From an uncultured Bacteroidales bacterium (GTDB lineage: Bacteria; Bacteroidota; Bacteroidia; Bacteroidales; Paludibacteraceae): 32,119 nucleotides of DNA. The stretch lies in the NCBI GenBank assembly GCA_902792535.1, contig CADAZU010000018.1, positions 1 to 32,119 of the forward strand, in the 5' to 3' direction. The notes below the pieces were generated by a model. The model was not told the DNA's origin, did no database searches, and worked only from the letters and a program-made list of their open reading frames with translations. How positions within the stretch are numbered: the first letter of the stretch is position 1; each line of letters begins with the position of its first letter. Positions 1,572-30,512 of this stretch are shown here, piece by piece. The translations under genes were made by a program, and so were the position numbers.

Positions 1572-3677
1572 ATGAAATTAATCCTAATATTATCTATTTT
1601 GCCGGCGATTTTAGCCGGGGAGTACAATGCCAAAACGCTTACCGTAGCGGAGCAGGACAGCATTTTGAAGGTACAAAGTAACCAAGTACCAAGTACAAAG
1701 GAGGAGGTTGCCTGTACGCGGTATAGGCTGGAGAGCGAGAACGAGGAGCAGATTTTCCGCCATTCGCAGGTGGCGGAGTGGTTCGTGTATGACACAATGC
1801 GGCACACGCGCAAGCGTCTCGGAGAAGGGATGTTCAAGGGCGAAGAGGTCAAGGTGCGCGACGCCGTGATGAGCCCGAACGGACGGTATGTGGCTTTTGC
1901 GAAAGACAACAACCTCTATATCCACAAACTCGATTTCGGAACCGAAGTGGCGGTGACGAAGGACGCGAACACCGAGATCATCAACGGTGTAGCGGACTGG
2001 CTGTACGAGGAGGAGTTTGCCACCACGGCGCTTTTTGCATGGAGTCCGGATTCGAAACAGCTGGCATTTATACGGCTGGACGAGACGGAAGTGCCGGAGT
2101 TCAGTTGGCAGACTTATCTGGAGACGCAGTATCCCGTTTCGGAGAGTCTGCGCTATCCGAAAGCCGGTTGCGCCAATGCGAAAGCGAGCGTCTGCGTCTA
2201 TGACGTGGCGACAAAGGGGATTGTGACGGTTAAGTTTTCGGAAGCCGGCAACCAGAACTCGGATTATTATTTCCCGCGGTTGCGGTGGACGGAGAGTGGG
2301 GAGCTGATTGTGCTGCGCGTGAACAGAGACCAGACGAAGATGGAGGTCTTTTCCTGCAACGCCAAATCGACCGTTTCGAACCTGCTGTACAAAGAGGAAA
2401 GCAAGAACTATTTTGTGGACTACAGCCTGTTCGACGAGTGGAAATGGCTGAGCGACGGACGGATCATTGTGCTGAGCGAGAAAGACGGCTGGCGGCGTGC
2501 GTATCTCTATAACGCGCAAGGGATTGAGCAGCGAACGCTGACGCCGGACGAGATGGATGTGACCGCGCTGTACGCCGTGGACGAGAAAGCGCAGATTCTG
2601 TATTATCAAGCCGCTCCGACGCCGAGCACAAGGCAGATCTACGCCTTGAATTACCAAAAACCAGCCGCCAGTATTCAGCTGACAGCAGGCGATGGTATGC
2701 ACAGCGCGCGATTCAGCGCGGACGGCAAGAAGATGATCGTCTGCTACCAGAGTTTTGATACACCGAACCGATATACGCTCTATAAAAGTCCCTCCCCGGG
2801 AGTTCTACGACCGTCCACAGGACGCTCGATCGAGCAGAGCTCTTCACCCCTTAAGGGTGGGGAAGTGCTGCTGAGCAATGACTCGCTGGCGGAGGCGTGG
2901 CAATCCAACGGTCTGCCGGAACCGGAACTGATGAAGATTCCGAACGGCAAGGGACAGGAGTTGGAAGCGATGCTGATGATAAGCGACAAAGTGACCAAGG
3001 ACCAAGGACCAAAGCCGTTGGTGGTGATGCACTATAGCGGTCCGGCGAGCCAGCGCGTGTTGAACCGTTGGCGCAAACGGTTCGAATATGCGTTAGTAGA
3101 AGCAGGCTACGCTGTGCTGATCGTGGACAGCCGCGGCGGCGATTGCCGTGGTCGTGCTTGGCGGAACGAGACATACATGGGCTTGGGAATCAAGGAAGCG
3201 GAGGATCTGATTGCTGCGGCGAACTATATCAGTCAGCGTCCGGAGATTGACGCGGACAGAATGGCAATCCTCGGCTGGAGTTACGGCGGATATGAGACGC
3301 TGATGACGATGAGCACCAAGGGACATCCGTTCAAAGCGGGTGTGGCGATTGCGCCGGTGACCGACTGGAAATTATACGACAGCGCTTATACGGAGCGCTA
3401 TATGCGTCGCCCGCAGGTTAATCCGCGCGGATATGAAGAGGCTTCGCTGATGAACCATGTGGAGGACATGAGCGGCGAGGTGCTTATTATCCACGGAACG
3501 GGCGATGACAATGTGCATGTGCAGCACGCGATGCAGTATTTTGACGCGCTGGTGAAGGCGGACAAGCAGTTTGAGATGCAGCTCTATCCGGACGACAATC
3601 ATTTCCTGCGCAAAGGCAACAACGCCAAGCACATGCACGAGCGCGTGTTGGGCTTTTTGGAACGAGTTTTAAAGTAA
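1572..3677 (+). CDS. Dipeptidyl peptidase IV-family serine peptidase, exported
   Basis: A 701-residue S9B peptidase that likely removes N-terminal dipeptides (often X-Pro) from peptides in the periplasm or at the outer face. A signal peptide is visible at residues 1-17 (MKLILILSILPAILAGE). The N-terminal beta-propeller carries the DPP4 Glu motif in WLYEEEF (Glu146-148). The C-terminal alpha/beta hydrolase domain has the nucleophile in GWSYGGY (Ser570), Asp645 in HGTGDDNVH and His677 in DDNHF; the Ser-Asp-His spacings resemble human DPP4. Length is typical once three odd insertions are allowed for (1671-1701, 2787-2866, 2984-3014), all in frame. First gene of a plus-strand run reaching 9045. 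Peptide use as carbon and nitrogen source is a reasonable role; exact substrate unknown. Confidence 0.92.
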   Translation: MKLILILSILPAILAGEYNAKTLTVAEQDSILKVQSNQVPSTKEEVACTRYRLESENEEQIFRHSQVAEWFVYDTMRHTRKRLGEGMFKGEEVKVRDAVMSPNGRYVAFAKDNNLYIHKLDFGTEVAVTKDANTEIINGVADWLYEEEFATTALFAWSPDSKQLAFIRLDETEVPEFSWQTYLETQYPVSESLRYPKAGCANAKASVCVYDVATKGIVTVKFSEAGNQNSDYYFPRLRWTESGELIVLRVNRDQTKMEVFSCNAKSTVSNLLYKEESKNYFVDYSLFDEWKWLSDGRIIVLSEKDGWRRAYLYNAQGIEQRTLTPDEMDVTALYAVDEKAQILYYQAAPTPSTRQIYALNYQKPAASIQLTAGDGMHSARFSADGKKMIVCYQSFDTPNRYTLYKSPSPGVLRPSTGRSIEQSSSPLKGGEVLLSNDSLAEAWQSNGLPEPELMKIPNGKGQELEAMLMISDKVTKDQGPKPLVVMHYSGPASQRVLNRWRKRFEYALVEAGYAVLIVDSRGGDCRGRAWRNETYMGLGIKEAEDLIAAANYISQRPEIDADRMAILGWSYGGYETLMTMSTKGHPFKAGVAIAPVTDWKLYDSAYTERYMRRPQVNPRGYEEASLMNHVEDMSGEVLIIHGTGDDNVHVQHAMQYFDALVKADKQFEMQLYPDDNHFLRKGNNAKHMHERVLGFLERVLK
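1671..1701 (+). repeat. Short-period repeat element (CCAAGTA type), copy 1, inside the peptidase gene
   Basis: Units GTACAAA, GTAACCAA, GTACCAA, GTACAAA follow one another (7-8-7-7 bases). They encode VQSNQVPSTK near residues 34-43, just after the signal peptide, in frame. Nearly the same DNA and peptide recur at 16979-17007 in an unrelated glycosyltransferase. Confidence 0.85.
2787..2866 (+). repeat. In-frame low-homology insertion with small palindromes, inside the peptidase gene
   Basis: About 80 bases encode a Ser/Pro/Gly-rich segment (SPSPGVLRPSTGRSIEQ, then SSSPLKGGE) between the last propeller strands and the hydrolase domain, where related peptidases have no such stretch as far as I recall. 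It holds the palindromes TCGATCGA and CCCCTTAAGGG plus a CTCCCCGGGAG segment. It looks like an inserted non-coding-type sequence that happens to be open. Boundaries are approximate. Confidence 0.55.
2984..3014 (+). repeat. Short-period repeat element (CCAAGGA type), copy 2, inside the peptidase gene
   Basis: Units GACAAAG, TGACCAAG, GACCAAG, GACCAAAG (7-8-7-8 bases) encode DKVTKDQGPK just before the core strand PLVVMHYSGP. It is the same element type as at 1671, but read in a different phase. Confidence 0.8.
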
Positions 3678-3682
3678 GCGTA

Positions 3683-3750
3683 CCGTCGAGACCTCGTCGG
3701 GACGTCGTCGAGAAATGGTATAAGTGAAAAATCACAAATTACAAAATAAC
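3683..3750 (+). repeat. Intergenic arrays: three 11-base units, then 7-base units
   Basis: In the 84-base gap after the peptidase gene, three 11-base units (CCGTCGAGACC, TCGTCGGGACG, TCGTCGAGAAA) fill 3683-3715. About nine bases further on, AAATCAC, AAATTAC, AAAATAAC follow at 7-8 base steps (about 3728-3750). No TAnnTTTG promoter is visible in the gap, so the transporter gene may be read from the peptidase promoter. Confidence 0.65.
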
Positions 3751-11075: not shown

Positions 11076-12341
<1,266 letters not shown>

Positions 12342-12417: not shown

Positions 12418-12491
12418 ATTTAAATGCTTTTTTCCCGATAAAAAACGATATTATGGTGTGTTATAATGCCGCATCTTCCCTTTCTCGTTCC

Positions 12492-12566
12492 GTTAATCCT
12501 GTGTTAATCCTGTGTTGGAAGGAGGAAAATGAAAGAACGAAGGATGAAGGAAAAAATAGGAAAAAT
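12492..12566 (+). repeat. Intergenic arrays: two 11-base units, then AAGGATG-type units
   Basis: GTTAATCCTGT is present twice in a row (12492-12513). It is followed by a purine-rich stretch with GAACGAAGGATGAAGG and related pieces up to about 12566, similar to the one at 17790-17826. It lies between the divergent promoters of glyA and the DUF4160 gene. Confidence 0.55.
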
Positions 12567-16287: not shown

Positions 16288-16318
16288 TCCCTGTATTATA
16301 ATGAACATATAGTTTTGC

Positions 16319-16341
16319 GTGAATCAGTGAATGAGTGAATC
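16319..16341 (+). repeat. Eight-base repeat array
   Basis: GTGAATCA, GTGAATGA, GTGAATC follow each other directly after the cassette. Confidence 0.6.
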
Positions 16342-16576: not shown

Positions 16577-16629
16577 TAAAAATCGGAAACTTTTGAGGGA
16601 CGAAAAAGGGCGATTTTAGGGCTTCTATC

Positions 16630-16684
16630 GTCTCGTATCTGTCTCGTAGGTGTCTCGTATGCAAGCCGTATGCAAGTCGTGCGG
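16630..16684 (+). repeat. Five tandem 11-base units
   Basis: GTCTCGTATCT, GTCTCGTAGGT, GTCTCGTATGC, AAGCCGTATGC, AAGTCGTGCGG run without gaps. Read on the other strand, the 3683-3715 array has the same GTCTCG/GTCCCG start and the same 11-base period. Confidence 0.8.
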
Positions 16685-16818: not shown

Positions 16819-17790
16819 ATGGATATTTCTGTAATAGTGCCTCTGTACAATGAGGCGGAGTCGCTGCCGAAACTCTACGAGTGGATCGCACGCGTAATGA
16901 AGGAAAACAAGTTTTCCTATGAGATCATTTTCGTCAATGACGGCTCAACTGATGAGTCGTGGAGCGTCATAGAGAAATTACAAAGTGACCAAGTACCAAG
17001 TACAAAGGAGCGTGGTGAGGTGCACGGGATCTGTTTCCGCCGGAATTATGGTAAGAGCGCGGCGTTGTATTGCGGATTCAAGGCTGCAAAAGGCGATGTG
17101 GTGATTACCATGGATGCGGACCTGCAGGACAGCCCGGACGAGATCCCCGAACTCTACCGGATGATCATGGAGGAGGGTTATGACCTCGTGAGCGGCTGGA
17201 AGCAGAAACGGTATGACAACAAGTTGACCAAGAACCTGCCGTCCAAACTGTTCAACGCCACGGCGCGCAAGGTAACCGGCATTCAGCTGCACGACATGAA
17301 CTGCGGACTGAAAGCCTACCGTCTGGAGGTTGTGAAGAACATAGAGGTATTCAGCGAGATGCACCGATATATCCCTTATCTGGCGAAGAACGCCGGATTT
17401 ACCAAGATCGGCGAGAAAGTGGTGCAACACCGCAAACGCGAGTTCGGTACGTCCAAGTTCGGTCTGAACCGTTTCGTGAACGGCTATCTGGACCTGATGA
17501 CCCTTTGGTTCCTTAACAAATTCGGCAAACAGCCGATGCACTTCTTCGGTTTGGTAGGAAGCCTGATGTTCCTGATCGGATTTATCGCTGTGATCGTTGT
17601 GGGAGGCATGAAATGGTATGCGCTGGCGCACCATGTGCCGGCAATGTTGGTTGGCGTGAACCCGTATTTCCATATTGCTATTCTGATGATGATCTTGGGT
17701 TGTATGTTGTTCCTTGCGGGCTTCTTAGCCGAGCTGGTGATCCGCAATTCGCCTTCGCGGAACGATTACCTGATCAAAGAAGAGATTTGA
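16819..17790 (+). CDS. GT2 glycosyltransferase, polyprenyl-phosphate sugar synthase type
   Basis: A 323-residue protein starting MDISVIVPLYNEAESLPKLY. FVNDGSTDES, RRNYGKSAALYCGFKAAKGD and MDADLQDSPDEIP (Asp99 and Asp101) mark the catalytic domain. The MNCGLKAYR segment and two C-terminal helices with LAELVIRNSP follow. It likely loads a sugar onto a polyprenyl phosphate or acts in envelope glycan synthesis. Residues about 54-64 (LQSDQVPSTKE) come from a repeat element nearly identical to one in the peptidase gene and are not part of the normal fold. Composition matches the bulk of the window, unlike the other GT2 at 13947. Followed 11 bases later by an unknown gene. Confidence 0.9.
   Translation: MDISVIVPLYNEAESLPKLYEWIARVMKENKFSYEIIFVNDGSTDESWSVIEKLQSDQVPSTKERGEVHGICFRRNYGKSAALYCGFKAAKGDVVITMDADLQDSPDEIPELYRMIMEEGYDLVSGWKQKRYDNKLTKNLPSKLFNATARKVTGIQLHDMNCGLKAYRLEVVKNIEVFSEMHRYIPYLAKNAGFTKIGEKVVQHRKREFGTSKFGLNRFVNGYLDLMTLWFLNKFGKQPMHFFGLVGSLMFLIGFIAVIVVGGMKWYALAHHVPAMLVGVNPYFHIAILMMILGCMLFLAGFLAELVIRNSPSRNDYLIKEEI
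16979..17007 (+). repeat. Short-period repeat element (CCAAGTA type), copy 3, inside the GT2 gene
   Basis: Units TACAAAG, TGACCAAG, TACCAAG, TACAAAG (7-8-7-7 bases), read in the same phase as the copy at 1671, giving QSDQVPSTK. It lies between IEKL and GEVHGICFRRNYG, a surface loop. Confidence 0.85.
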
Positions 17791-17826
17791 AAGGATGAAG
17801 GATGGAAGATGAAAAGACGAAGGAAT
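17790..17826 (+). repeat. Heptamer-like purine array at a gene junction
   Basis: AAGGATG, AAGGATG, GAAGATG, then AAAAGACGAAGG span the gap after the GT2 gene and the first codons of the next one. The start ATG at 17802 is inside the array. Confidence 0.6.
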
Positions 17827-19037
17827 TAGGTAACCAAGTGAATACGATAGAGCGTGCGCTGGGCGAATGTATGGTGGAGACCGCAGCAACGGTCGTTCGC
17901 GTGTGGCTGAACGAGTTGGGAGAAATAAATCCGTACGAGCAAGCGTTGCACTCCATCCGCACTCGATACCATGAGGTGTTCGTCAAATGGCTGAACATAG
18001 ACGACCCGGAAGCGGAGAGTGAACTGGACAAAATCACGGGCGAGATGTACCAGTTATGCGACGCCGTGTATGCTGATATTCGTCTCAAACGCGGACTCTC
18101 GCCGGAGATGCATGGTTTTAATCCGAAGACCGTTTCGTCTGTGCTGAACTATTTCCAGAATTGCATCCAGTTGACGGAAAAGGATTTTAAGTGGTTAGAC
18201 GATGCGATGCATGACCCAAAGCAGACCGGAGCGGCGTTGATTGCTATAACGGCGCTGACCCGGAACCTGCGCGAGTGTTTCTCTATCGATGGCATGTATG
18301 CGCTGATAGGGGGCATAGACAGCGAGGTGGAGGTGGTTGCCAACCACTGTCTGGTCAATGTGATCTCGCTGCTGATCCATTACGACGTGCGGATCGATTT
18401 CTTCCCGTCCATCCAAGAGGAGTTTGCCCTTCAGATCTCGGAACCGGAGAAAGAAGACAAAGCGTTTGAAATGCTCTGTACGCTGGTGGAATACTCCAAG
18501 AAATCGCTGCTGGAAGAGTTCGCAACCGGTATGATGCCGCTGAATTGGCTGCCGGAGAGCATGCAGAAGCTGGTTCAGGCGTCCGGCATTCAGAATGACC
18601 ACAAGACGTTCTATTCCTGGGTACCCAAAGCCGAAGTGGAGTACATGACGGAGTTGGTGAACAACCTGCCCGGGACGTGGGTCTATCAAGAGCTCGTCGG
18701 AAATGATATTGAGAAAGAGAAGTTCCTCGTGAAGATCGCGGTCGAGTGCGGTTACCGGGACTATCTGTGGCTCAAGCCGCGCGCAGCCGGACAAGTCTAC
18801 CGTGATAAGTTGCGCGAAGGAGCGAATGAGCCGATTGATTACATCAATTATGCTCATTGCCTGATGGTTTTAGGCGACCGGATGATGGCGTTTGAGAACT
18901 ATCGGTTGGCGCGTCAAGCCTGCGGTTCGCTCAAAGATTTCTATGCCCTTTTCCGTCCGGACAGGCGTGCTCTGGTGGATCATGGCGTGCCGATGGACTT
19001 CGTCTATTTCATCGAAGATAATTTGGTGAAGGGGTGA
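17802..19037 (+). CDS. Conserved-looking protein of unknown function, mostly helical
   Basis: A 411-residue protein with no signal peptide or membrane helix, rich in predicted alpha helix (for example ALGECMVETAATVVRVWLNE and YINYAHCLMVLGDRMMAFEN). The last 100 residues look like tetratricopeptide-type helical pairs (INYAHCLMVLGDRMMAFENY, RLARQACGSLKDFYALFRPD). I do not recognise a named family. It is 11 bases after the GT2 gene and shares its strand, so it is probably cotranscribed. The first ~10 codons (MEDEKTKELG) come from a short repeat array, so an alternative start such as the GTG at about 17838 cannot be excluded. It ends in a heptamer array shared with the convergent gene. Confidence 0.7.
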   Translation: MEDEKTKELGNQVNTIERALGECMVETAATVVRVWLNELGEINPYEQALHSIRTRYHEVFVKWLNIDDPEAESELDKITGEMYQLCDAVYADIRLKRGLSPEMHGFNPKTVSSVLNYFQNCIQLTEKDFKWLDDAMHDPKQTGAALIAITALTRNLRECFSIDGMYALIGGIDSEVEVVANHCLVNVISLLIHYDVRIDFFPSIQEEFALQISEPEKEDKAFEMLCTLVEYSKKSLLEEFATGMMPLNWLPESMQKLVQASGIQNDHKTFYSWVPKAEVEYMTELVNNLPGTWVYQELVGNDIEKEKFLVKIAVECGYRDYLWLKPRAAGQVYRDKLREGANEPIDYINYAHCLMVLGDRMMAFENYRLARQACGSLKDFYALFRPDRRALVDHGVPMDFVYFIEDNLVKG

Positions 19038-19059
19038 CGGGTTACCGGTTACGGGTCAG
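19032..19059. repeat. Four heptamers spanning two convergent stop codons
   Basis: GGGTGAC, GGGTTAC, CGGTTAC, GGGTCAG run without gaps. The first supplies the TGA of the unknown gene (19035-19037) and the last supplies the TGA of the convergent PagL-like gene (19058-19056). Confidence 0.75.
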
Positions 19060-20375: not shown

Positions 20376-20385
20376 TTTTCCGCTG

Positions 20386-20433: not shown

Positions 20434-20458
20434 TGCCCAAATTGCGTGATAAGAAATC

Positions 20459-21862
20459 ATGATTTCGTCTCAAAACATACAAAATTTCTTTTTTCTGGGT
20501 ATCGGCGGCATAGGGATGAGTGCCCTTGCGCGCTATTTTCACCATCATGGCTACCCCGTGAGCGGTTATGACCGCACTCCTTCTGCGCTGACCCGCGAGA
20601 TGGAGACGGAGGGGATTCGGATTACGTATGTGGACGATCCTGCAATTCTCCATTCTCAATTCTCTGATAATCGTGCCCCTTCGGGGCTAAGAACTCTCAA
20701 TTCCCGCAACACGCTCGTCGTGCGCACGCCGGCTGTTCCGGAGGATAGCGCTATATACACGTATTTGCGAGAGCAGGGATTCGACATCCGCAAGCGTTCG
20801 GAAGTGCTGGGAATGGTGACGCGGGAGAAGAAAGCGCTTTGCGTTGCCGGCACGCACGGCAAGACGACGACCAGCACGATGTTGGCGCACCTGCTGAATC
20901 CCGTGAATGCGTTCCTCGGCGGAATCAGCATGAACTACGGCACGAATGTGCTGATGGACAAGGAGAGCGAATATGTGGTGGTGGAGGCGGATGAATACGA
21001 CCGCTCGTTCCATCGGCTGACGCCGTATATATCTGTAGTGACGGCGGTCGATGCCGACCATCTGGATATCTACGGAACCGCGGAGGCGTACCGCGAGGCG
21101 TTTGCTCATTACACGAGCCTCATCACCGGTGCGCTGGTGATGAAGCACGGCATCGCGTTGGAACCGAGGCTGCAACCCGGCGTCAAATGCTATACGTACG
21201 GAGCAGGCGGCGATTTCTATGCCGAGAATATCCGCGTGAGCGAGGGACAGATTGTCTTTGATTTCCACACACCGGAGGACGTGGTGCATGATATAGAATT
21301 AGGTGTACCCGTGTGGGTGAACATAGAGAACGCCGTGGCTGCGATGAGTGTTGCATGGCTGGTGAATAAGGAGAAAAATACTCATTATTCATTATTCATT
21401 AACCACTTGAAAGAAGCGGTAGCATCCTTCAAGGGCGTGCAACGGCGCTTCAATATCCATCTCAACACGCCGAAGGTGGCGTATATAGACGACTATGCGC
21501 ACCATCCGCAGGAGATCGCAACGGCGATAGATTCGATCCGAAAGGTGTATCCTTCTCGCAGGCTGATCGGTGTGTTCCAACCACACCTATATACTCGCAC
21601 GCGCGATTTTGCGGACGGGTTTAGAAAAGTGCTGGCTACCATGGACGAATGTGTCCTGCTGCCGATCTATCCGGCGCGCGAGGAACCGATCCCCGGTGTC
21701 ACGAGTGAAATATTAGGCGGCAAAGTTGTTCAAAAGAGCGAACTGGTGGATGAGTTGAAACGCAGAGTTGCTGCATCCAAGGAGCCGGTGGTCGTGCTGA
21801 CCGTCGGAGCCGGAGACATAGATCGGCTGGTGCCTGCAGTAGCAAAGGGATTGAGTGAATGA
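20459..21862 (+). CDS. murC: UDP-N-acetylmuramate--L-alanine ligase
   Basis: A 467-residue Mur ligase that joins L-alanine to UDP-MurNAc, the first peptide step of peptidoglycan synthesis, in the cytoplasm. The N-terminal Rossmann loop is FFLGIGGIGMSALARYF, the ATP loop is CVAGTHGKTTTSTMLAHLL, and the central domain has VEADEYDRSFHRL and DADHLDIYG; the C-terminal domain has DDYAHHPQEI and FQPHLYTRTRDF. Two in-frame stretches are foreign to the family: residues about 63-84 (ILHSQFSDNRAPSGLRTLNS) and a loop THYSLFINHL before the SFKGVQRRF motif. Both come from short repeats. The stop overlaps ftsQ (ATGA). Confidence 0.95.
   Translation: MISSQNIQNFFFLGIGGIGMSALARYFHHHGYPVSGYDRTPSALTREMETEGIRITYVDDPAILHSQFSDNRAPSGLRTLNSRNTLVVRTPAVPEDSAIYTYLREQGFDIRKRSEVLGMVTREKKALCVAGTHGKTTTSTMLAHLLNPVNAFLGGISMNYGTNVLMDKESEYVVVEADEYDRSFHRLTPYISVVTAVDADHLDIYGTAEAYREAFAHYTSLITGALVMKHGIALEPRLQPGVKCYTYGAGGDFYAENIRVSEGQIVFDFHTPEDVVHDIELGVPVWVNIENAVAAMSVAWLVNKEKNTHYSLFINHLKEAVASFKGVQRRFNIHLNTPKVAYIDDYAHHPQEIATAIDSIRKVYPSRRLIGVFQPHLYTRTRDFADGFRKVLATMDECVLLPIYPAREEPIPGVTSEILGGKVVQKSELVDELKRRVAASKEPVVVLTVGAGDIDRLVPAVAKGLSE
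20644..20703 (+). repeat. Heptamer array plus hairpin inside murC
   Basis: AATTCTC, CATTCTC, AATTCTC (20644-20664) is followed by the perfect hairpin GCCCC-TTC-GGGGC (20675-20687) and a further CTCTCAATTC (20694-20703). It is open in the murC frame and adds about 20 residues. Confidence 0.75.
21379..21403 (+). repeat. Heptamer array inside murC, second site
   Basis: After ACTC come ATTATTC, ATTATTC, ATTAACC: three heptamers making 21 bases, a whole number of codons (encoding HYSLFIN with flanking bases). Confidence 0.7.
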
Positions 21863-22599
21863 GTGTCGGACGGATCATATGGAGTTGTGTGGGAATCGCG
21901 GTCATGGCGGGACTTATGGCGGCGGCGATTGCTTGGGGGTATATATCCCGTCCGGCGGAAGAGCCGTGTACCGCATTGGAATATATCATTGAGGACCGCG
22001 CGGAGCGGATGTATCTGTCGGAGAGCGAGTTGACGGCATTGCTGGTGGGGCAGGATATTTACCCGGTGGGTAAGACGCTGAACACCGTGGCGCTTCACCG
22101 GATAGAGAATGCGATCCAACATCACCCGATGGTGCGCAAGGCGGAGTGCTATCTGACTCCGAGACATATCGTCCGTGTCCGTCTGACCCAGCGCGTGCCT
22201 CTTCTGCGCGTGCAGACGCCGGTGGACACATACCTGATAGATACGGATCGCAAGGTGATGCAGGCGCGCAATAGTGTGCGCGACGAAGTGCCGCTGGTCA
22301 CGGGCAATGTGGGAACACAGATGGCTTCGGGTCGGCTGGCGGATTTCGCTCAGTGGCTGCAGGACGAACCTTATTGGCAGGAGCGGATTCACCATCTCTA
22401 TGTCCAAACGCCGATCATGGTCTATCTCTATATGCGCGGAGAAAACCAGCCGCGGGTGGTGATGGGGGCTATGCACGGCTATGAGCGGAAACTGAAGAAA
22501 CTAAGGACTTTTTACCGGAACAGCCCGGAAGAAGTGAAAGCAAAAAACTATACCGAACTGGACTTGCGCTTTCGCGGGCAGGTGATCGGTAGATATTAA
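21859..22599 (+). CDS. ftsQ: Cell division protein FtsQ
   Basis: A 246-residue single-pass protein. One N-terminal helix (residues about 5-27) is followed by a POTRA-like region with YLSESELTALLVGQD and ENAIQHHPMVRKAECYLTPR, then VRLTQRVPLLRVQT and YLIDTDRKVM. FtsQ links cytoplasmic and periplasmic parts of the divisome. The call is by fold pattern and position between murC and ftsA, since FtsQ is weakly conserved. It begins in the murC stop codon and ends 25 bases before ftsA. Confidence 0.9.
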   Translation: MSVGRIIWSCVGIAVMAGLMAAAIAWGYISRPAEEPCTALEYIIEDRAERMYLSESELTALLVGQDIYPVGKTLNTVALHRIENAIQHHPMVRKAECYLTPRHIVRVRLTQRVPLLRVQTPVDTYLIDTDRKVMQARNSVRDEVPLVTGNVGTQMASGRLADFAQWLQDEPYWQERIHHLYVQTPIMVYLYMRGENQPRVVMGAMHGYERKLKKLRTFYRNSPEEVKAKNYTELDLRFRGQVIGRY

Positions 22600-22624
22600 A
22601 CATAAACTTTAACTATTTACACAA

Positions 22625-23908: not shown

Positions 23909-23919
23909 AAACTACGAAT

Positions 23920-25176
23920 ATGAATGAAGATTTAATTACTCTGCCTTTGGAAGGCTTGACAGAAGATAGTATTATCAAAGTGATCGGTGTCGGTGGTGGT
24001 GGCTGCAATGCGGTTAACTATATGCACCGCCAAGGATTGAAGGATGTGTCCTTCTTGGTATGTAACACCGATCGTCAGGTGTTGATCAAATCCTCTGTAC
24101 CGAATAAGTTGCAACTCGGTCCCGGTTTGGGAGCCGGTGGCGATCCGGAGACCGCGCGCCAGTATGCCGAGGAGAGCAGGGATCATATCCGTGAGGCGCT
24201 CAACGATGGCACCCAGATGCTGTTTATTACTGCCGGAATGGGTGGTGGAACAGGAACCGGTGCGTCTGCCGTAGTTGCCGAAGTGGCGCAAGAGATGGGG
24301 ATTCTGACGGTGGGTATTGTGACCATTCCGTTTGCTTTCGAGGGCAAGAAGAAGATCGAAAAAGCGATGACAGGCGTAGCGCGGCTGGCGAAGCATGTGG
24401 ACGCACTCCTTATTATTAATAATGAGAAACTGAAACAGATTTATCCGGAGCTGAACTTGCTCAATGCGTTCTCCAAGTCGGACGACGTGGTAGCCAATGC
24501 GGCGCGCGCGATCGCGGAGATCATTACTGTACCGGGATATATCAATACCGACTTTGCCGACGTGCGCAATACGCTGAAGAAAGGCGGCGTGGCAATCATG
24601 AATATCGGTCGCGCTTCCGGCGAGAAACGTATTACCAACGCCATCAACGACGCCCTCAATTCGCCGCTGGTCAACACCAACGACGTCCACGGAGCGGAGC
24701 GCATTCTGCTCCAGTTCTATTGCTCCACCGAGCACGCTATAGTCATGGAAGAGATCGACCAGATCAACGATTTCGTGCAAGAGGTGGGGGACAATATCGA
24801 GGTGCAATGGGGTGCTTCGATCGACGAGACGCTGGGAGAGGAAGTGCGCGTGACCGTCATTGCTACCGGATACAAAGTGGACGGTCTGCCATCCGAGGAC
24901 GAAGAGGAAGGCAAGAAGACCATCGCGGAAGCCATCGATGCCAATTATCCTCCGCAGACACCGAAACCGATGGAGGACGAACCGGCGCAACTGATCGACC
25001 TGAGTGACACACTTCGCGCAGAGGGCGTAGAACCGCCGGCGCAACCCCGTGAGCGCGCGACTTCGGCTTCGGCGGAAGAGATCGTGATCAAGGTGGAAGA
25101 AGAGGCGGCTCCTGAAGAAAAACCCAAAGAGACCTCTCATCGGCCCTTTGGATGGATTAGAAGAAATAAAAATTAA
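23920..25176 (+). CDS. ftsZ: Cell division protein FtsZ
   Basis: A 418-residue tubulin-like GTPase that forms the division ring. The N-terminal IKVIGVGGGGCNAVNYM, the tubulin signature GGGTGTG (residues 108-114) in ITAGMGGGTGTGASAVVAEV, and GYINTDFADVRNTLKKGGVA are clear. A long acidic, Pro- and Glu-rich linker (about residues 325-400) leads to a C-terminal RPFGWIRRNKN, where partner proteins bind in other bacteria. Length is normal for the phylum. It is followed five bases later by an unknown membrane-protein gene, so that gene is likely expressed with it. Confidence 0.97.
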   Translation: MNEDLITLPLEGLTEDSIIKVIGVGGGGCNAVNYMHRQGLKDVSFLVCNTDRQVLIKSSVPNKLQLGPGLGAGGDPETARQYAEESRDHIREALNDGTQMLFITAGMGGGTGTGASAVVAEVAQEMGILTVGIVTIPFAFEGKKKIEKAMTGVARLAKHVDALLIINNEKLKQIYPELNLLNAFSKSDDVVANAARAIAEIITVPGYINTDFADVRNTLKKGGVAIMNIGRASGEKRITNAINDALNSPLVNTNDVHGAERILLQFYCSTEHAIVMEEIDQINDFVQEVGDNIEVQWGASIDETLGEEVRVTVIATGYKVDGLPSEDEEEGKKTIAEAIDANYPPQTPKPMEDEPAQLIDLSDTLRAEGVEPPAQPRERATSASAEEIVIKVEEEAAPEEKPKETSHRPFGWIRRNKN

Positions 25177-25181
25177 ACTAT

Positions 25182-26132
25182 ATGGAAAGAGAAATGAATT
25201 TTTGGGACCTCTGTGTCGCCTGTGGTCGCGCAATAGGTCGTGGCTGCGTAGCACTCTGGAACATCTTGTCGCGCATGATCCGCCTGACGTACCGTTATTG
25301 GTACATCGTTGTGACTTTGGTCGTTCTGGCTATCGCGCTGGCAATCTATCATACCCGGCCGAAGAACATCAAATACCGCGTGAACGCCATCGCTATGGTC
25401 AATGGGGCTTCGATGCAGCAGTTTGAGAAAGCGTTTGCGCCCCTTCAGTCCGGTCATTTACTGCCGCCGGACGCCAAGATAGCGCCTTATATGCGTTGGA
25501 AACAGGCTGGCAATTTTAATATCTTCCGTGTTGTGGACGTGCACCATGACGGAGTGGCGGACTACATTGATTTCAAACGCAAATCATCACCCAAGGATAC
25601 GGCGGAGGTGCAAATGCAGGATCGCGTTTGTATCCAGTTCCAAACATCGGCGGTGTTCGTGCCTATGATTCCGGAGATAGAAGAAGCCATTCTGGAACTG
25701 CTCAACGGCAATGAGGCGTTGCAGCAGGCTCATGAACTCTATCTGGAGAACTTGCGCGAAGAAGTAGCCTTTAACCACCGCCAGGCGGTTAAACTGGACA
25801 GCCTCACCAGCGCGTATTATTACAATGCCGGTTCGCCTGCAGCGATGATGAACAAAGATGGCAACGGTGTCAATTTCTACGGAGATCGTAGGATTCGTCT
25901 CTTCCTGGGCGAGATATACAAGCAGCAACTTCACACCCGGAACGGCGACCTGCGTCTGCAGCTGGCTTATGCTCCGGTAGTGCTGGAGAACCATTTTGCC
26001 GTAGATCCTGCTCCGGTCATGACCCGTACGAAATGCGTCATCCTGTTTTTCCTGCTTTCGTGGATAGTAGGATGCCTGATTGCCGAACTGATCGACCGCC
26101 GCAAAGCGATCGCGGAATGGCTGAAAAAATAA
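25182..26132 (+). CDS. Unknown two-helix membrane protein following ftsZ (Wzz-like topology)
   Basis: A 316-residue protein. A first helix (about residues 40-58, WYIVVTLVVLAIALAIYH) and a second near the C-terminus (CVILFFLLSWIVGCLIAELI) flank about 220 residues that should lie in the periplasm; both ends face the cytoplasm. The layout resembles chain-length regulators (Wzz) or similar envelope proteins, but no family motif is recognised. A coiled-coil-prone part is ALQQAHELYLENLREEVAFN. It sits five bases after ftsZ and ends just before a strong hairpin, so it is the last gene of the division operon. The start could also be the ATG at 25194. Confidence 0.75.
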   Translation: MEREMNFWDLCVACGRAIGRGCVALWNILSRMIRLTYRYWYIVVTLVVLAIALAIYHTRPKNIKYRVNAIAMVNGASMQQFEKAFAPLQSGHLLPPDAKIAPYMRWKQAGNFNIFRVVDVHHDGVADYIDFKRKSSPKDTAEVQMQDRVCIQFQTSAVFVPMIPEIEEAILELLNGNEALQQAHELYLENLREEVAFNHRQAVKLDSLTSAYYYNAGSPAAMMNKDGNGVNFYGDRRIRLFLGEIYKQQLHTRNGDLRLQLAYAPVVLENHFAVDPAPVMTRTKCVILFFLLSWIVGCLIAELIDRRKAIAEWLKK

Positions 26133-26153
26133 ATAACAATGAAGATATAAAAG

Positions 26154-26183
26154 AAACGCGTGGGGCTAAGCCTTCACGCGTTT
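26154..26183. terminator. Bidirectional terminator between convergent operons
   Basis: AAACGCGTG (26154-26162) pairs perfectly with CACGCGTTT (26175-26183), with an inner GGC-TAA-GCC pair; T residues follow on the plus strand (TTTTAT) and A residues precede (minus-strand T run). It serves the ftsZ-linked gene on one side and dedA, whose stop lies in the loop, on the other. Confidence 0.85.
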
Positions 26184-26855
26184 TATCATCCATCGGATGA
26201 GGTAGTAGAGTATTACTGCCCCAAGCAGTATGAGTATCGCCACGGATAGTTCGTGGCTATATTTGTTTATGAGGTCCGCTTGACCGTGCGCCACATATCC
26301 GAGGACGGCGAGCACCGTGTTCCATAGCCCTGCGCCCAGGAAGGTGTAGAACAGGAACCAACCGAAATGCATCTTACTCAGTCCCGCCGGAATAGAGATC
26401 AGTTGGCGGATACCCGGGATAAAACGCCCGACAAACGTACTGACCTTGCCGTGGTCATTGAAATAAGCTTCTGCTTTCTCCACTTTCTCGCGGCTCAAGA
26501 GACACAGATGCCCTAATTTGCTATCCGCAAAAGCATAAATGATCGCGCGTCCCAGCCAAAGAGAGAGCAGGTAATTGATGATAGCGCCCAGCATGGCTCC
26601 TATCGTACCGAAAAGGACAATCAGCGCTACGTTCACAAAATAACTGTCGCTCACATAGACTGCGCTGCTTGGGTCTGCCGCTACATATGCTGCAGGCGGA
26701 ATGACGACCTCGCTCGGGAAAGGAATGAACGAACTCTCCACGGTCATAAGCGCCGTGATAGAAGCGTAGTTCATGTTCGCGCTATACCAGTCTGTAACAA
26801 CCGACACCCAGTTGGTGCCGGTTGCTAACAGAATGATCAGAAATGCTCGTTTCAT
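26166..26855 (-). CDS. DedA-family membrane protein (VTT/SNARE-associated)
   Basis: A 229-residue inner-membrane protein. ESSFIPFPSEVVIPPAAYVA and GRFIPGIRQLISIPAGLSKM are DedA signatures. Members are involved in membrane homeostasis and some transport undecaprenyl phosphate or phospholipids across the membrane; which applies here is unknown. The ATG overlaps the yqeY stop by four bases, and the gene ends inside the bidirectional terminator, so it is the last gene of the lepA operon. Confidence 0.9.
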   Translation of the reverse strand: MKRAFLIILLATGTNWVSVVTDWYSANMNYASITALMTVESSFIPFPSEVVIPPAAYVAADPSSAVYVSDSYFVNVALIVLFGTIGAMLGAIINYLLSLWLGRAIIYAFADSKLGHLCLLSREKVEKAEAYFNDHGKVSTFVGRFIPGIRQLISIPAGLSKMHFGWFLFYTFLGAGLWNTVLAVLGYVAHGQADLINKYSHELSVAILILLGAVILYYLIRWMIKRVKA

Positions 26856-27304
26856 TGGGCTAAGAGCTCACGCACTTTGAGGTTGATGGCTTTGCCTTCC
26901 GCCTTGCCGGCGAGTTGTTTGGTTGCCACGCCCATTACTTTGCCCATGTCCTGCGGACCCGTAGCACCCACTTGCGCAATGATCTCGCGTAGCGCAGCGG
27001 TCAGTTCCTCCTCGCTCAGCATAGCCGGGAGATACTGCTCAATGATCTTGCATTGCGCCAGCTCGTCTTCTGCCAACTCGGGACGTCCGGCATCGATGTA
27101 CATCTGCGCCGATTCCTTGCGTTGCTTCACCATCTTCTGAAGGATCTGCAATGCCTTCTCGTCGTGCAGTTCGCCGTCGCTGCCTTTGGCAGTCTTCGCC
27201 TCCAGGAACTCTTTCTTGATTCCGCGCAGCGCGTCCAGCGCTACTTTATCTTTCGCGAGCATCGCTTTTTTGATGTCCTCGCTGATTTGATCAAATAAAC
27301 TCAT
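26852..27304 (-). CDS. yqeY: GatB/YqeY domain protein
   Basis: A 150-residue protein of the YqeY family: MSLFDQISEDIKKAMLAKDK, LRGIKKEFLEAK, QRKESAQMYIDAGRPELAED and ATGPQDMGKVMGVATKQLAG. The domain also occurs at the C-terminus of GatB, where it helps tRNA-dependent amidation; free-standing members have no settled role. Its ATG follows directly after an octamer array that contains the nhaD stop codon. Confidence 0.92.
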   Translation of the reverse strand: MSLFDQISEDIKKAMLAKDKVALDALRGIKKEFLEAKTAKGSDGELHDEKALQILQKMVKQRKESAQMYIDAGRPELAEDELAQCKIIEQYLPAMLSEEELTAALREIIAQVGATGPQDMGKVMGVATKQLAGKAEGKAINLKVRELLAQ

Positions 27305-27329
27305 AAATCTTCAAATCCTCAAATTTTCA
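27305..27329 (-). repeat. Octamer array filling the nhaD-yqeY gap
   Basis: On the plus strand CTTCAAAT, CCTCAAAT, TTTCAAAT. The coding-strand TGA of the antiporter gene is formed by the end unit and the yqeY ATG begins just after the first one. Confidence 0.65.
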
Positions 27330-28673
27330 AATAAACAACAGTTGTACGATAATATAAACCGGCAGGAGGATGATGAGCGAGAACTTAATCATATAGCCGA
27401 AGAAGGACGGCATCTTGATTCCGCTCTCCTCTGCGATGGCTTTCACCATGAAGTTAGGTCCGTTGCCGATATAGGTCAGCGAGCCGAACATCACAGCCGC
27501 GATGGAGATGGCTTTGAGCAGTATCTCCGGAACACCGGCTACGAAAGGTGTGCCGTTGAACATACCTGTTACGACACCTGCTTCAGCGGCAGCAAGCGAC
27601 TCCGGCAGACCGGAAGCAACGCCGTGGAAGGCAACGGCAGTAGGTGTGTTATCGAGGAACGCGGAGAGCGCACCGGTCGAGTAATAGAACTGCCATGCGT
27701 GGGTGAAACCGAGGTCGGCTGCGTGCGCCTTTAGATAGGCGAGGGCAGGGGTCATCGTCGTGAAAATACCGAGGAACAGAACCGCTACCTCTACTATTGG
27801 CGTCCAGCTGAACTTGTTGTCGCCGAAACGCACCTCTTTCTTGGTGGTGTAGAGCGAGAGACCTGTGAGCGAGAGAAGAACTATCTCACGCAGGTATTTG
27901 AGCCACAGCGGAGCGTCCGCTTCACCCATCTGTTTGATGGTTCCTTCGTTCACAAAAGCCACTGCGAGCACTACGCCTAACAGATAGACGAAATTGATAG
28001 TACCTTTCATCACCATCGGGGTCGCCTCACGCGAGTCCGCGGAGAGGGATGTCCAGTGCTCTTTCTTGTAATAATAGGTATCCATCGCGAAATAGATGCC
28101 GAGCAGCAGAATTCCCGTAACAGCCCATTCGGGCGCAAGGTGCATGAACCATGAGAAGTGTGCGCCGCGGAGGAAGAGCATGAACAAAGGTGGGTCGCCC
28201 AGCGGAGTGAGCAGACCGCCGCAGTTGGCTACCAGCGCAATGAAGAAAAGGATGGTGTGAACCTTGTGCTCACGCTGTTTGTTGGTCTCGATGAGCGGAC
28301 GGATAAGCAGCATGGCTGCGCCCGTCGTTCCCATGATAGAGGCTAAGATCCAGCCCAAGCCCAGGAAACCGGTGTTGACCCAGGGTTTGGCTTTCAGGTC
28401 ACCCGAGAAATGAATACCGCCGGTGATGACAAACAGCGCCAGCAGCAGGATGATGAACGGCACGTAGTCGAAGAAGATCTGGTGCTCCAACTCGTGCAGC
28501 ATTCCGCCCATGATCAGGCATACCGCTACGGGCACGCCGAGGAAGAGGGAAACAATGAGTTTGTTGGTGTTCTTCTCCCACCAGTGTTCAGCTACCAGCG
28601 GACCGATAGCGATCATCAGAAGCATGAGGCCGAACGGAATCAGCGACCATGCCGAATGTACAAATTGTTCCAT
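27327..28673 (-). CDS. nhaD: NhaD-type Na+/H+ antiporter (ion transporter superfamily)
   Basis: A 448-residue protein with about 11-12 membrane helices. TTGAAMLLIRPLIETNKQRE, then VANCGGLLTPLGDPPLFMLF and LSAFLDNTPTAVAFHG, are the pattern of the NhaD branch of the arsenite/citrate-type ion transporters. It should exchange Na+ (or Li+) for protons and may use the Na+ gradient built by NQR, whose nqrA is at the left edge; this link is inference. It lies 27 bases after lepA with no promoter visible in the gap. The C-terminus QLLFI ends in a short repeat. Confidence 0.87.
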   Translation of the reverse strand: MEQFVHSAWSLIPFGLMLLMIAIGPLVAEHWWEKNTNKLIVSLFLGVPVAVCLIMGGMLHELEHQIFFDYVPFIILLLALFVITGGIHFSGDLKAKPWVNTGFLGLGWILASIMGTTGAAMLLIRPLIETNKQREHKVHTILFFIALVANCGGLLTPLGDPPLFMLFLRGAHFSWFMHLAPEWAVTGILLLGIYFAMDTYYYKKEHWTSLSADSREATPMVMKGTINFVYLLGVVLAVAFVNEGTIKQMGEADAPLWLKYLREIVLLSLTGLSLYTTKKEVRFGDNKFSWTPIVEVAVLFLGIFTTMTPALAYLKAHAADLGFTHAWQFYYSTGALSAFLDNTPTAVAFHGVASGLPESLAAAEAGVVTGMFNGTPFVAGVPEILLKAISIAAVMFGSLTYIGNGPNFMVKAIAEESGIKMPSFFGYMIKFSLIILLPVYIIVQLLFI

Positions 28674-28700
28674 AGTATTTATATAATGAATAAAATGTTG

Positions 28701-30512
28701 TTAGTCCAACTTCAGCACCGCTAAGAACGCTTTCTGTGGCACTTCTACGTTGCCGATCTGTTTCATTCGTTTCTTGCCTCGCTTCTGTTTCTCCAGCAGC
28801 TTGCGCTTACGGCTCACGTCACCGCCGTAACATTTGGCGAGGACATCTTTGCGAACCTGCTTGACCGTTTCGCGGGCAATGATCTTCGCCCCGATAGCCG
28901 CCTGTATTGCAATGTCAAACTGCTGTCTCGGCAGCAACTCTTTCAGCTTCTCGCACATCCGCCGTCCGAAATCCACGGCGTTGTCCCGGTGCGTCAACGT
29001 GCTCAGCGCATCTACCTGTTCGCCGTTCAGCAATATATCCAACTTCACGAGGTTCGACGGACGGAAACCGTTCATATGCCAATCGAAAGACGCATAGCCT
29101 TTGGAAATACTCTTCAGCTTGTCGTAGAAATCAATCACGATCTCGCCCAACGGCATATCGAACAGCAACTCCATTCGGTTGCCGGATATATATTCTTGTT
29201 TGACGAGTTCGCCGCGTTTGCCCAGACACAGCGTCATGATCGGACCGATGTAATCCGCTGTCGTTATGACACTTGCGCGGATATACGGCTCCTCGATCCG
29301 GTCTATCTCCGTCAAGTCGGGCATGCCGGCAGGGTTATGCACCTCCACCATGCCGCCGTCCTTGGTATAGACGTTGTAACTTACGTTCGGAACGGTCGTG
29401 ATCACGTCCATGTCGAACTCGCGGTCCAGACGTTCCTGCACGATCTCCATGTGTAGCAAACCTAAGAATCCGCAGCGGAAACCGAAGCCCAACGCCATCG
29501 AACTTTCCGGCTGGAAAGTGAGACTTGCGTCGTTCAACTGCAACTTCTCCAGACTTGCCCGCAGATCCTCATAATCCTCACTCTCAATAGGATACACACC
29601 GGCGAACACCATTGGTTTGGCTTCCTCAAATCCGTCAATCGCTTTCTCGCAAGGCCTGTCCACATGCGTGATCGTATCACCCACTTTGACCTCGGTCGAA
29701 GTCTTGATTCCGGAAATAATATATCCCACGTTTCCGGCAGAAATCTCTTTGCGCGGACTCATGTCCAGTTTGAGAATACCGATCTCGTCCGCGTCGTACT
29801 CTTTGCCCGTGTTCACGAACCGCACTTTCTCGCCCGTTTTCATCGTGCCGTTCACCACTTTGAAATAAGCGATGATTCCTCGGAAACTATTGAAAACACT
29901 GTCAAAAACCAGACATTGCAGCGGCGCTTTCGGATCACCTTTCGGAGCAGGAATACGTTCTACGATGGCGTCCAAGATCTCCGGCACACCTTCGCCTGTC
30001 TTGGCGGAGCAGCGCAAAATCTCCTCGCGCTTGCAGCCCAACAGCTCTACAATCTCGTCCTCCACACGCTCCGGCATGGCGTTTTCCATGTCGCATTTGT
30101 TGAGCACAGGAATGATCTCCAGATCATGCTCAATCGCCATATAAAGATTGCTGATCGTCTGCGCTTGCACACCTTGCGTAGCATCCACCACCAGCACAGC
30201 GCCCTCGCAAGCCGCAATACTCCGGCTCACCTCATAACTGAAGTCCACATGCCCCGGAGTATCAATCAGATTGAGAGTATATGGGCTATCTTTTGGTACT
30301 TGGTCCTTTGTCCCTTGGTACTTATAGCTCATCTGAATTGCGTGGCTCTTAATAGTGATGCCGCGTTCTTTCTCCAGATCCATATCGTCCAGCACTTGGT
30401 TCTCCATCTGCCGCACATCCACAGTCTGCGTGATCTCCAGCATTCGGTCCGCCAGCGTACTCTTGCCGTGGTCGATATGCGCAATTATACAAAAATTCCG
30501 TATCTTATCCAT
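28701..30512 (-). CDS. lepA: Elongation factor 4 (back-translocating ribosomal GTPase)
   Basis: A 603-residue translation GTPase. G-motifs are AHIDHGKST, the switch [19 protein letters not shown] and NKCDM. The C-terminal region [20 protein letters not shown] and [20 protein letters not shown] is unique to LepA and separates it from EF-G. Residues about 66-77 ([12 protein letters not shown]), just before the DTPGH strand, are extra compared with other LepA proteins and come from a repeat element. The catalytic loop is intact. First gene of the lepA-nhaD-yqeY-dedA unit, with its promoter at 30545-30575. Confidence 0.97.
30291..30324 (-). repeat. Short-period repeat element (CCAAGTA type), copy 4, inside lepA
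   Basis: Coding strand units TACCAAG, GGACAAAG, GACCAAG, TACCAAAAG: the same 7-8-7-n structure as copies 1-3, encoding [10 protein letters not shown]. Confidence 0.8.

What the first reader, a model, noticed from the sequence alone, without database searches (positions are those of the whole stretch)
1671..30324. Short-period direct-repeat arrays (7, 8 or 11 bases) scattered between and inside genes
At least a dozen sites hold 2-5 near-identical units in a row: heptamers at 1671, 2984, about 3728, 9478, 16979, 17790, 19032, 20644, 21379 and 30291; octamers at 16319 and 27305; 11-mers at 3683, 12492 and 16630. The unit sequence differs from site to site, but the architecture is constant. Several lie in frame inside strongly conserved enzymes where relatives have no extra residues. 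They are not a CRISPR, not an IS, and too regular for random low complexity. They may be footprints of a copying or repair process, or a family of tiny mobile repeats. The mechanism is inference; the arrays are seen directly.
Basis: partly seen in the sequence, partly recalled or inferred. Interest (0 to 1): 0.75.

Follow-up and report, generated by a model that had tools for sequence, protein, structure and literature searches.

The report
Seven-base repeats rewriting bacterial protein loops
A group of gut bacteria carries many tiny arrays of 7-, 8- or 11-base repeats that keep turning up, with a different repeat sequence in different species, in the same loops of essential enzymes, so the spacing of the repeat is kept while its letters are not.

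Summary
The arrays are real: 14 of 15 named sites pass a repeat test, and the window holds 15 TRF rows of period 7/8/11 against about 2 (maximum 6) in shuffles. They belong to a genome-wide phenomenon of one Paludibacteraceae (Bacteroidales) genus: 10-20 period-7 arrays per 100 kb in five genomes sampled, against 1.5 in samples of six other families. Units are not all unrelated: four window sites share one dispersed family (GTACCAAG). Dominant families differ between species. Arrays sit in frame in conserved enzymes. LepA has one length-variable turn; 10 of 29 genomes aligned carry an insert there, nearly all different, needing 9 changes on a tree (6 forced). One peptidase loop is significantly 7- or 8-periodic in 15 of 22 genomes, with about ten units. 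A 92.5%-identical relative shows one clean 22-nt empty site and other sequence at three more array sites. No reverse transcriptase and no above-cut-off RAYT-type transposase was found in the genome; MutS is present. Best explanation: short patches copied between arrays by microhomology-guided template switching, plus 7-nt slippage, filtered by selection. The pattern is shown; the enzymatic cause is inferred. Closest known: bacterial heptamer repeats and Rickettsia palindromic elements; this is a new variant.

The parts
1671..1702 (+). GTACCAA-family heptamer array in frame in the S9 (DPP-IV-like) peptidase gene 1521-3677 (VQSNQVPSTKE)
   Evidence: rearranged in relative G075; 3 of 24 genomes, window included, are significantly 7-periodic in this loop
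2783..2867 (+). Hairpin-rich REP-like insert in frame in the same peptidase gene, shared with G075, absent from the 22 other genomes aligned
2984..3016 (+). GACCAAG heptamer array in the peptidase loop before PLVVMHYSGP; most relatives aligned have another 7- or 8-nt array in this loop
3684..3713 (+). 11-mer array just after the peptidase stop codon
3728..3756 (+). degenerate 7/8-nt array upstream of the next gene's start codon
9478..9509 (-). degenerate GAAAGTG-type run (KLKVES); below both thresholds used here
   Evidence: not or 80
12489..12518 (+). intergenic 11-mer array
16318..16341 (+). octamer array (GTGAATCA) downstream of the ORF ending at 16287
16626..16681 (+). two abutting intergenic 11-mer arrays
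16975..17009 (+). GTACCAA-family array in frame in a GT2 glycosyltransferase gene (KLQSDQVPSTKERG); shared with G075, absent from G022 (net +7 aa)
17788..17824 (+). GGATGAA heptamer array across a gene junction; G075 has other, 48-nt longer sequence there
19031..19052 (+). clean 22-nt insertion GGGTGACGGGTTACCGGTTACG at a stop codon; empty site in G075
20643..20705 (+). MurC insert 1: AATTCTC heptamers, hairpin GCCCCTTCGGGGC, AATTCTC heptamers
   Evidence: least confident stretch of the model
21377..21405 (+). MurC insert 2: TCATTAT heptamers (8 extra residues)
27305..27332 (.). AAATCTTC octamer array between genes; a longer hairpin-type sequence stands there in G075
30291..30324 (-). GTACCAA-family array in frame in lepA, at the one internal length-variable turn of the protein

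Best explanation
Short tandem arrays with a preferred period of 7 (also 8 and 11) nucleotides are multiplying through the genomes of one Paludibacteraceae genus. SHOWN: they are far above chance, enriched in this clade, dispersed as families with shared multi-unit sequences and ragged ends, and dominated by different units in different species. They recur at the same loops with different units, and some were gained or exchanged within about 7% nucleotide divergence. One family is read in one direction as hydrophilic loops and in the other as signal-peptide-like cores. INFERRED: a stalled or broken replication strand anneals by a few bases of microhomology to an array elsewhere, copies 20-60 nt, and returns (microhomology-mediated template switching or conversion). 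Slippage in 7-nt steps then lengthens, shortens and homogenises the array. Each array is a microhomology landing pad, so occupied loops keep being rewritten. Insertions fall widely, and selection keeps in-frame ones in surface loops, at gene ends, in signal peptides and between genes. No dedicated enzyme is required.
For: Periodicity and density. Dispersed families: 94 overlapping pattern hits (up to 2 mismatches) against 0 for the reversed pattern; 44 looser GTACCAAG matches, some weak, many sharing the irregular 7-8-7-7 order AAGTACCAAGTGACCAAGTACCAAG. Exact 24-mer GGTGACGGGTTACCGGTTACGGGT at 2 places in G000, 3 (2 loci) in G006 and 2 in G051 (one in lepA), with unrelated flanks and ragged ends. 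Clean 22-nt insertion with GGGT at the junction. LepA: inserts in 10 of 29 genomes, nearly all of different kinds, 9 changes with 6 forced by starred branches; the count cannot tell gain from loss. Peptidase loop 3: 12 of 22 at lag 7 and 5 at lag 8 (p<=0.02, uncorrected), none at lags 5, 6, 9, 10, 11; 12 hand-assigned states need 14 changes. Orthologues with an array at the same site 12 of 67 (17 of 67 at a looser threshold) against 5.6% (7.0%) at random sites; some pairs counted from both sides. Same-length replacement: MurC in L112, MurG-like gene in G003 and G006. Selection filter: 58% of 122 period-7 arrays inside ORFs against 92% of random placements; 42% within 60 nt of a stop codon against 7%; GTACCAAG sense in 31 gene bodies, antisense in 8 N-termini that by eye read as signal peptides. 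No RVT_1 in G000, PF01797 in G000 only below its cut-off, MutS_V in 40 of 41 genomes.
Against: Only one clean empty-site pair was found at nucleotide level, and the donor of no insertion is proved. The family in LepA of G068 (GAGAGC) has only 5 hits in that genome, so not every insert comes from an abundant resident family. Template switching was not observed, and slippage may explain part of the changes. The other loop of the peptidase (site 1671) is significantly 7-periodic in only 3 of 24 genomes. Lags 6 and 9 are also raised, less or partly for coding reasons. The repair gene set was not surveyed beyond MutS domain V. G000 is 82.65% complete, so absences are weak. GGGT at one junction is short enough to be chance.
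Confidence: 0.45

Rival explanations
1. Local replication slippage only: each array is born by duplication of a native 7-mer and evolves as a microsatellite (long simple sequence repeat); 7 nt is a property of the replicative polymerase. Families recur because of composition and convergent preference.
For: Period 7 is preferred, with 8 and 11, whatever the unit; heptamers are described as the most abundant class of longer simple repeats in most genomes (PMC4679880 introduction, citing Mrazek 2007). The 22-nt insertion at 19031 lies beside native GGTGAAGGGTTAG, which resembles its unit.
Against: Identical 24-mers with the same order of unit variants at loci with unrelated flanks and in different species; shared irregular 7-8-7-7 order; LepA inserts carry non-repeat filler and hairpins absent from empty alleles; species-specific dominant families.
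Confidence: 0.22
2. An unrecognised dedicated activity (an unknown transposase, a non-RVT_1 templated polymerase, or an end-joining system) writes array patches into the genome.
For: High density in one clade; period conserved while sequence is not; repeated filling of one site.
Against: No fixed ends, no consistent target duplication seen, no fixed length; no RVT_1 in G000, G003, G006 or G022; PF01797 only below cut-off in G000 and without a match in G002 and G006, with weak above-cut-off fragments in G003 and G022.
Confidence: 0.15
3. The arrays are functional sites (for example translation or RNA-binding signals, as proposed for TAACTGA repeats) kept by selection on the DNA or RNA.
For: Strong enrichment near stop codons.
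Against: Units differ between species at the same site; many lie deep inside coding regions; no exact TAACTGA pair and no GGGNATC pair in 832 kb.
Confidence: 0.06
4. Same-site arrays are one ancestral insertion whose units diverged quickly (concerted evolution in place) rather than repeated insertion.
For: MurC and peptidase loops are occupied in several related species with similar length; G000 and G075 share the MurC arrays almost unchanged.
Against: LepA: inserts of unrelated kinds scattered on the tree among empty alleles, at least 6 forced changes. It may still hold for MurC site 1 and the peptidase loop.
Confidence: 0.12

Closest known systems
Heptanucleotide long simple sequence repeats (Mrazek 2007, as described in PMC4679880) and TAACTGA repeats of Beggiatoaceae, cyanobacteria and some Bacteroidetes (MacGregor 2015, PMC4679880)
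   Same: Short tandem heptamers scattered over a genome, over-represented, lineage-patchy, no known mechanism
   Different: There mainly one unit, mostly intergenic in the main genome. Here dozens of units per genome, also 8- and 11-mers, over half of the period-7 arrays inside ORFs, unit swapped between species at the same site; no exact TAACTGA pair
Degenerate heptanucleotide repeats of cyanobacteria (STRR, name seen in the search listing; P6b region of the Nostoc tRNA-Leu intron, passage of PMC3488679)
   Same: Degenerate heptamers, copy-number change, other sequence elements inserted, repeat classes at one site (class scheme cited there to Costa 2002)
   Different: There an intron stem-loop of one gene; here loops of many protein-coding genes with dispersal between loci
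Rickettsia palindromic elements (RPE; Ogata 2000 and 2002, via passages of the review PMC10969869)
   Same: Small repeats inserted in frame in unrelated metabolic genes
   Different: RPEs are about 150-bp palindromic families with a conserved peptide; here about 20-60-nt period-7 arrays without fixed ends. Hairpin elements co-occur at the same sites
GGGNATC quadruplex repeats of Xanthomonas and Nostoc (PMC4692102, abstract)
   Same: Heptamers spread over the genome, near gene ends
   Different: G-rich and under-represented in coding regions; here distinct units average 35% G+C and no GGGNATC pair was found
REP elements with RAYT transposase
   Same: Hairpin elements co-inserted with heptamers resemble REPs (by recall)
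   Different: No PF01797 match above cut-off in G000, and none at E<=0.001 in G002 and G006

Membership tests
Long simple sequence repeats of unit 5-11 nt | tandem units longer or more numerous than expected in that genome | tested here: met
   (degenerate units allowed; the exact-run excess rests on few sites)
Long simple sequence repeats of unit 5-11 nt | coding arrays mainly with unit length a multiple of three | tested here: not met
   period 7: 58% of 122 arrays inside ORFs
TAACTGA repeats | unit TAACTGA in tandem | tested here: not met
   0 exact pairs in 832 kb
Rickettsia palindromic elements | in-frame insertion in unrelated genes | tested here: met
Rickettsia palindromic elements | about 150-bp palindromic unit with conserved peptide | tested here: not met
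   inserts of about 20-90 nt with ragged ends and differing peptides
REP/RAYT | RAYT (Y1_Tnp) transposase in the genome | tested here: not met
   G000 only E=8.8e-4, below cut-off; genome 82.65% complete
Diversity-generating retroelement or retron product | reverse transcriptase in the genome | tested here: not met
   no RVT_1 in G000, G003, G006 or G022; present in G002, which also has arrays
Mutator-driven microsatellite expansion | loss of MutS | tested here: not met
   MutS_V in 40 of 41 genomes (missing in a 54%-complete one); MutL and MutH not tested
Microhomology-mediated template switching | new patch matches a donor elsewhere and has microhomology at both junctions | tested here: inconclusive
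   one clean case with GGGT at the junction and one exact second copy in G000; direction of copying unknown
GGGNATC quadruplex repeats | G-tract heptamer unit | tested here: not met

The most novel reading that the evidence does not exclude
These genomes run a continuing process of natural insertional mutagenesis in which the period (7, 8 or 11 nt) is the conserved quantity and the sequence is not: an unidentified, perhaps dedicated, copying activity spreads array patches between loci, so that loops and signal peptides of core enzymes are repeatedly rewritten with a species-specific vocabulary of heptamers.
Probability: 0.2. Interest if true: 0.9.

Novelty: new variant of a known kind. Interest (0 to 1): 0.72.

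Why it matters
Heptamer repeats have been noted in bacterial genomes without a mechanism. Here many related genomes show filled, empty and refilled sites inside near-invariant genes, so birth, copying and replacement of arrays can be dated and their junctions read. It gives a natural record of which turns of LepA, MurC, an S9 peptidase and (names by recall) MurG and Dxs tolerate insertions, and a route by which loops and signal peptides can change quickly. If a dedicated activity lies behind it, it would be a new kind of genome-writing process.

Tried and rejected
Rejected: chance; RAYT transposition; reverse-transcriptase-driven writing; loss of MutS; one universal unit (118 distinct canonical heptamers in the five sampled genomes plus L101-L124; TCA/TGA occurs in 58 against 32 expected, a bias and not a rule); TAACTGA or quadruplex repeats; a general trait of the order (six other families, 400 kb: 6 arrays, two of them T-runs). 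CRISPR and IS were set aside by inspection only.

Led nowhere: the peptide text search NYELRI (0 papers); 80 kb more of G075 gave no alignment with my G000 sample. The GAGAGC matrix is weak, and its reversed control is void, because that pattern read backwards is a rotation of the same unit. The indel classifier labels only 2 of 18 events period-7: alignment noise in a divergent permease gene fills its list, and two array-for-other-sequence swaps were labelled 'other'. A regular expression for peptidase loop 2 matched no sequence.

Literature: all 10 searches used. No title or abstract start listed describes in-coding heptamer arrays of Bacteroidales, but one search listed 40 of 53 papers and one search listed 25 of 148, and subscription papers and preprints are mostly not held.

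Dropped before counts: LepA: 56 of 61 genomes matched, 30 loci fetched, 29 aligned (L230 not extracted). Peptidase: 57 of 61 matched, 24 fetched, 22 parsed for loop 3 and 24 for loop 1. MurC: L085 not extracted and 11 matching genomes not fetched. Ortholog pairs under 55% identity left out (67 of 81 kept).
Full report
WHAT WAS CHECKED. The window is contig 18 of a 2.37-Mb, 82.65%-complete genome. Its nearest named relatives are MAGs titled Paludibacteraceae or Bacteroidales, many from ruminant gut (MurC 68-78% identical for the top 15). Host genes: LepA, MurC, a DPP-IV-like S9 peptidase, a GT2 glycosyltransferase, YqeY, a CitMHS_2 permease and SHMT (Pfam). The 15 array sites were tested one by one: 12 by TRF, 2 more by a lag scan, 1 (9478) by neither. 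The window exceeds shuffles clearly, and 832 kb of the genome exceeds them overwhelmingly at lags 7 (122 against 2.3), 8 (53 against 3.3) and 11 (60 against 4.0) and at 14, 15, 16, 22 and 33. Lags 4, 5 and 17 are near expectation, 10 and 13 slightly raised (11 against 2.7, 7 against 2.3), and 6, 9, 12, 18 and 21 are raised too, which may partly reflect codon-phased protein repeats. Arrays of period 11 are mainly intergenic (60%); those of period 7 are 58% inside ORFs, 29% at an ORF edge and 13% between (greedy ORFs of at least 80 aa).

FAMILIES. The arrays are not all unrelated. GTACCAA/GGACCAA units at 1671, 2984, 16979 and 30291 belong to a family with 94 overlapping pattern hits in the genome against 0 for the reversed pattern. 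Among 44 looser matches, some of them weak, a longer irregular order recurs, AAGTACCAAGTGACCAAGTACCAAGTACCAAGG, steps 7-8-7-7. AATTCTC, TCATTAT and AAATCTTC families recur as well. The array at 19031 shares an exact 24-mer with a second locus of the same genome and with lepA of G051; copies elsewhere share the core, have unrelated flanks and end raggedly. This argues for copying of multi-unit blocks between loci.

RELATIVES. Four congeners sampled by 80-299 kb each show 10.5-20.1 lag-7 arrays per 100 kb, but other dominant units: G003 AATCACC and AACCCGT, G002 AACCATT. GGTTACG-family hits: G051 190, G003 92, G006 85, G022 56, G053 55, G000 24, the other seven genomes 0-7; the reversed control gave up to 17, in G051. 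GTACCAA hits: G000 41, G075 26, G022 16, the other ten 0-10; the reversed control gave 21 in G002 against 10 hits there, where the reversed unit is itself a resident family. GAGAGC is weak (5 in G068, 17 in G022); its reversed control is void because it is a rotation of the same unit. In samples of six other families of the order, 400 kb held 6 lag-7 arrays, two of them T-runs. Named loci around murC show the same gradient: 28 arrays in 105 kb (15 closest), 6 in 64 kb (next 9), 6 in 394 kb (other 56).

SAME LOOPS, DIFFERENT UNITS. LepA was searched in 61 genomes of the genus (56 matched at 1e-150); of the best 30 loci, 29 were aligned. The only internal variable-length block, apart from a single-residue gap in one sequence, is the turn between KSHAIQMxYK and [11 protein letters not shown]. 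Ten of 29 carry an insert: GTACCAA (window), TCAGC-type (G075), GGTTACG (G051), GAGAGC (G068), GAAAGTC plus hairpin (G057), AATGGTG plus hairpin (G071, G053), hairpins (G002, G072), and a looser repeat (G007). On a quick tree from the rest of the gene the insert needs 9 changes, 6 forced by starred branches, no less scattered than shuffled labels; such counts do not separate gain from loss. The nearest solved EF4 chain (5imq_B) has 7 residues fewer there than the window. In the S9 peptidase, the loop before PLVVMHYSGP was parsed in 22 of 24 aligned genomes, window included: 12 are significant at lag 7 and 5 at lag 8 (p<=0.02 per lag, uncorrected), none at lags 5, 6, 9, 10 or 11; 15 different sequences have 7 or 8 as significant best lag. 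The first loop of the same protein (site 1671) is much less affected: 3 of 24 at lag 7, 2 at lag 8, 1 at lag 10. Units in the hot loop, assigned by hand, include GACCAAG, AAATCTC, AAATCAC, AACAGCC, AAGAGCC, GGTAACC, GACCAAC, CAAACCG and two octamers; 12 states (including 'weak' and 'none') need 14 changes on a weakly supported tree. MurC shows two such loops: among the window and L101-L115, arrays at the first in 6 of 16 and at the second in 5 of 16. In L112 the second loop is an array with no length change, and a gene that I take by recall for murG shows different arrays of equal length in G003 and G006 between conserved flanks. Over 141 coding arrays in five genomes, 81 ortholog alignments spanned the site; among the 67 at 55% identity or more the net length differences run from -10 to +16, and 12 orthologues have an array at the same site against 5.6% at random sites of the same alignments, some pairs being counted from both sides. 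Shared sites may reflect shared tolerance, shared ancestry, or both.

TEMPO. G075 is 92.5% identical over window 16763-27308. There the arrays in MurC (both) and in the GT2 gene are shared nearly unchanged, and peptidase loop 3 is identical. The array at 19031 is a clean 22-nt insertion absent from G075. Those at 17788 and 27305 correspond to other, longer sequence, the LepA array is of another family, and peptidase loop 1 is rearranged within the family. So of nine array sites compared, four are conserved, one rearranged and four gained or exchanged.

SELECTION. Of GTACCAAG matches in the sample, 31 are sense in gene bodies (SDQVPSTK-like), 1 sense near a start, 8 antisense in the first 40 codons, all reading by eye as signal-peptide or lipoprotein cores (LVLGTLSLGTSC-like; no predictor was run), 5 antisense in bodies (some weak matches or doubtful ORFs) and 7 outside ORFs. 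Arrays lie within 60 nt of a stop codon in 42% (period 7), 47% (8) and 23% (11), against 7% of random positions. A model of window MurC (mean pLDDT 92.6, 36 sequences) is confident overall and places insert 1 in the least certain stretch (blocks 61-70 and 71-80 at 80 and 62); insert 2 lies at the end of a helix and the following turn. The arrays counted inside genes keep the frame, which the ORF criterion itself demands.

MECHANISM. Machinery tests were negative: no RVT_1 in G000, G003, G006 or G022; PF01797 only below cut-off in G000, weak above-cut-off fragments in G003 and G022; MutS in 40 of 41 genomes. Arrays and hairpins occur together (MurC insert 1; a related composite has the same hairpin core with the flanking heptamers in the opposite orientation). 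The most economical reading is passive spread by microhomology-guided copying between arrays plus 7-nt slippage and a selection filter. What is shown is dispersal, recurrence, turnover and placement. What is inferred is template switching and the reason for 7. The preference for 7 stays unexplained; the idea of a 7-nt polymerase contact is attributed to Mrazek and colleagues in the introduction of PMC4679880.

PRIOR WORK SEEN. PMC4679880: abstract, introduction and the section on cyanobacteria and Bacteroidetes. PMC4060949: passages and part 1 of 2 of section 3.1; its Table 2 gives a median of +0.75 for 7n3 in Bacteroidetes. PMC4692102: abstract and outline. PMC3488679 and PMC10969869: passages. 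Mrazek 2007, Costa 2002 and Ogata 2000/2002 were not read and are known only through these. No paper seen describes coding-region heptamer arrays exchanged between species at the same loops (searches, some with capped lists).

VERDICT. A real, lineage-enriched and unusually informative variant of bacterial heptamer repeats. The pattern is firm; the mechanism is likely but not proved. On re-checking, facts were mended (void GAGAGC control, lag 6 and 9 excess, loop 1 result) without a change of odds.

Noticed in passing
window 27327-28682: The CitMHS_2 permease gene is 94.9% identical to G022 although the window is about 71-81% identical to G022 around it, and only about 74% to G075 over 28022-29056, while G075 is 92.5% identical next door: looks like allelic replacement or recent transfer of one gene.
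   Followed up: partly
window 2783-2867: An 85-nt hairpin-rich element sits in frame inside the peptidase gene; a similar-looking element is at the 27307 site in G075.
   Followed up: partly
window 20643-20705; L053 and L056: Composite element heptamers-hairpin-heptamers; the same hairpin core is flanked by heptamers in the opposite orientation in L056.
   Followed up: partly
own-genome sample, e.g. L036, L042, L046, L056, L066: Signal-peptide-like N-termini of several proteins are made of the GTACCAAG repeat read antisense (LVLGTLSLGTSC).
   Followed up: partly
window 16451-16704: A 255-bp repeat 88.6% identical to L059:19299-19045 overlaps the 11-mer arrays.
   Followed up: no
window 12001-18000: G+C falls to 40-45% over ORFs for a GtrA-like protein, glycosyltransferases and a large membrane protein (the GtrA name is from recall): possible acquired island.
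   Followed up: no
own genome, 832 kb: Lag-9 arrays are as many as lag-11 ones in G000 (60, 75% inside ORFs) but fewer per 100 kb in the four congeners sampled.
   Followed up: no
G051:C6:170389-170611 and C27:10-583: Long higher-order arrays of a 21-nt unit built of three heptamers of the GGTTACG family: possible expansion loci.
   Followed up: no
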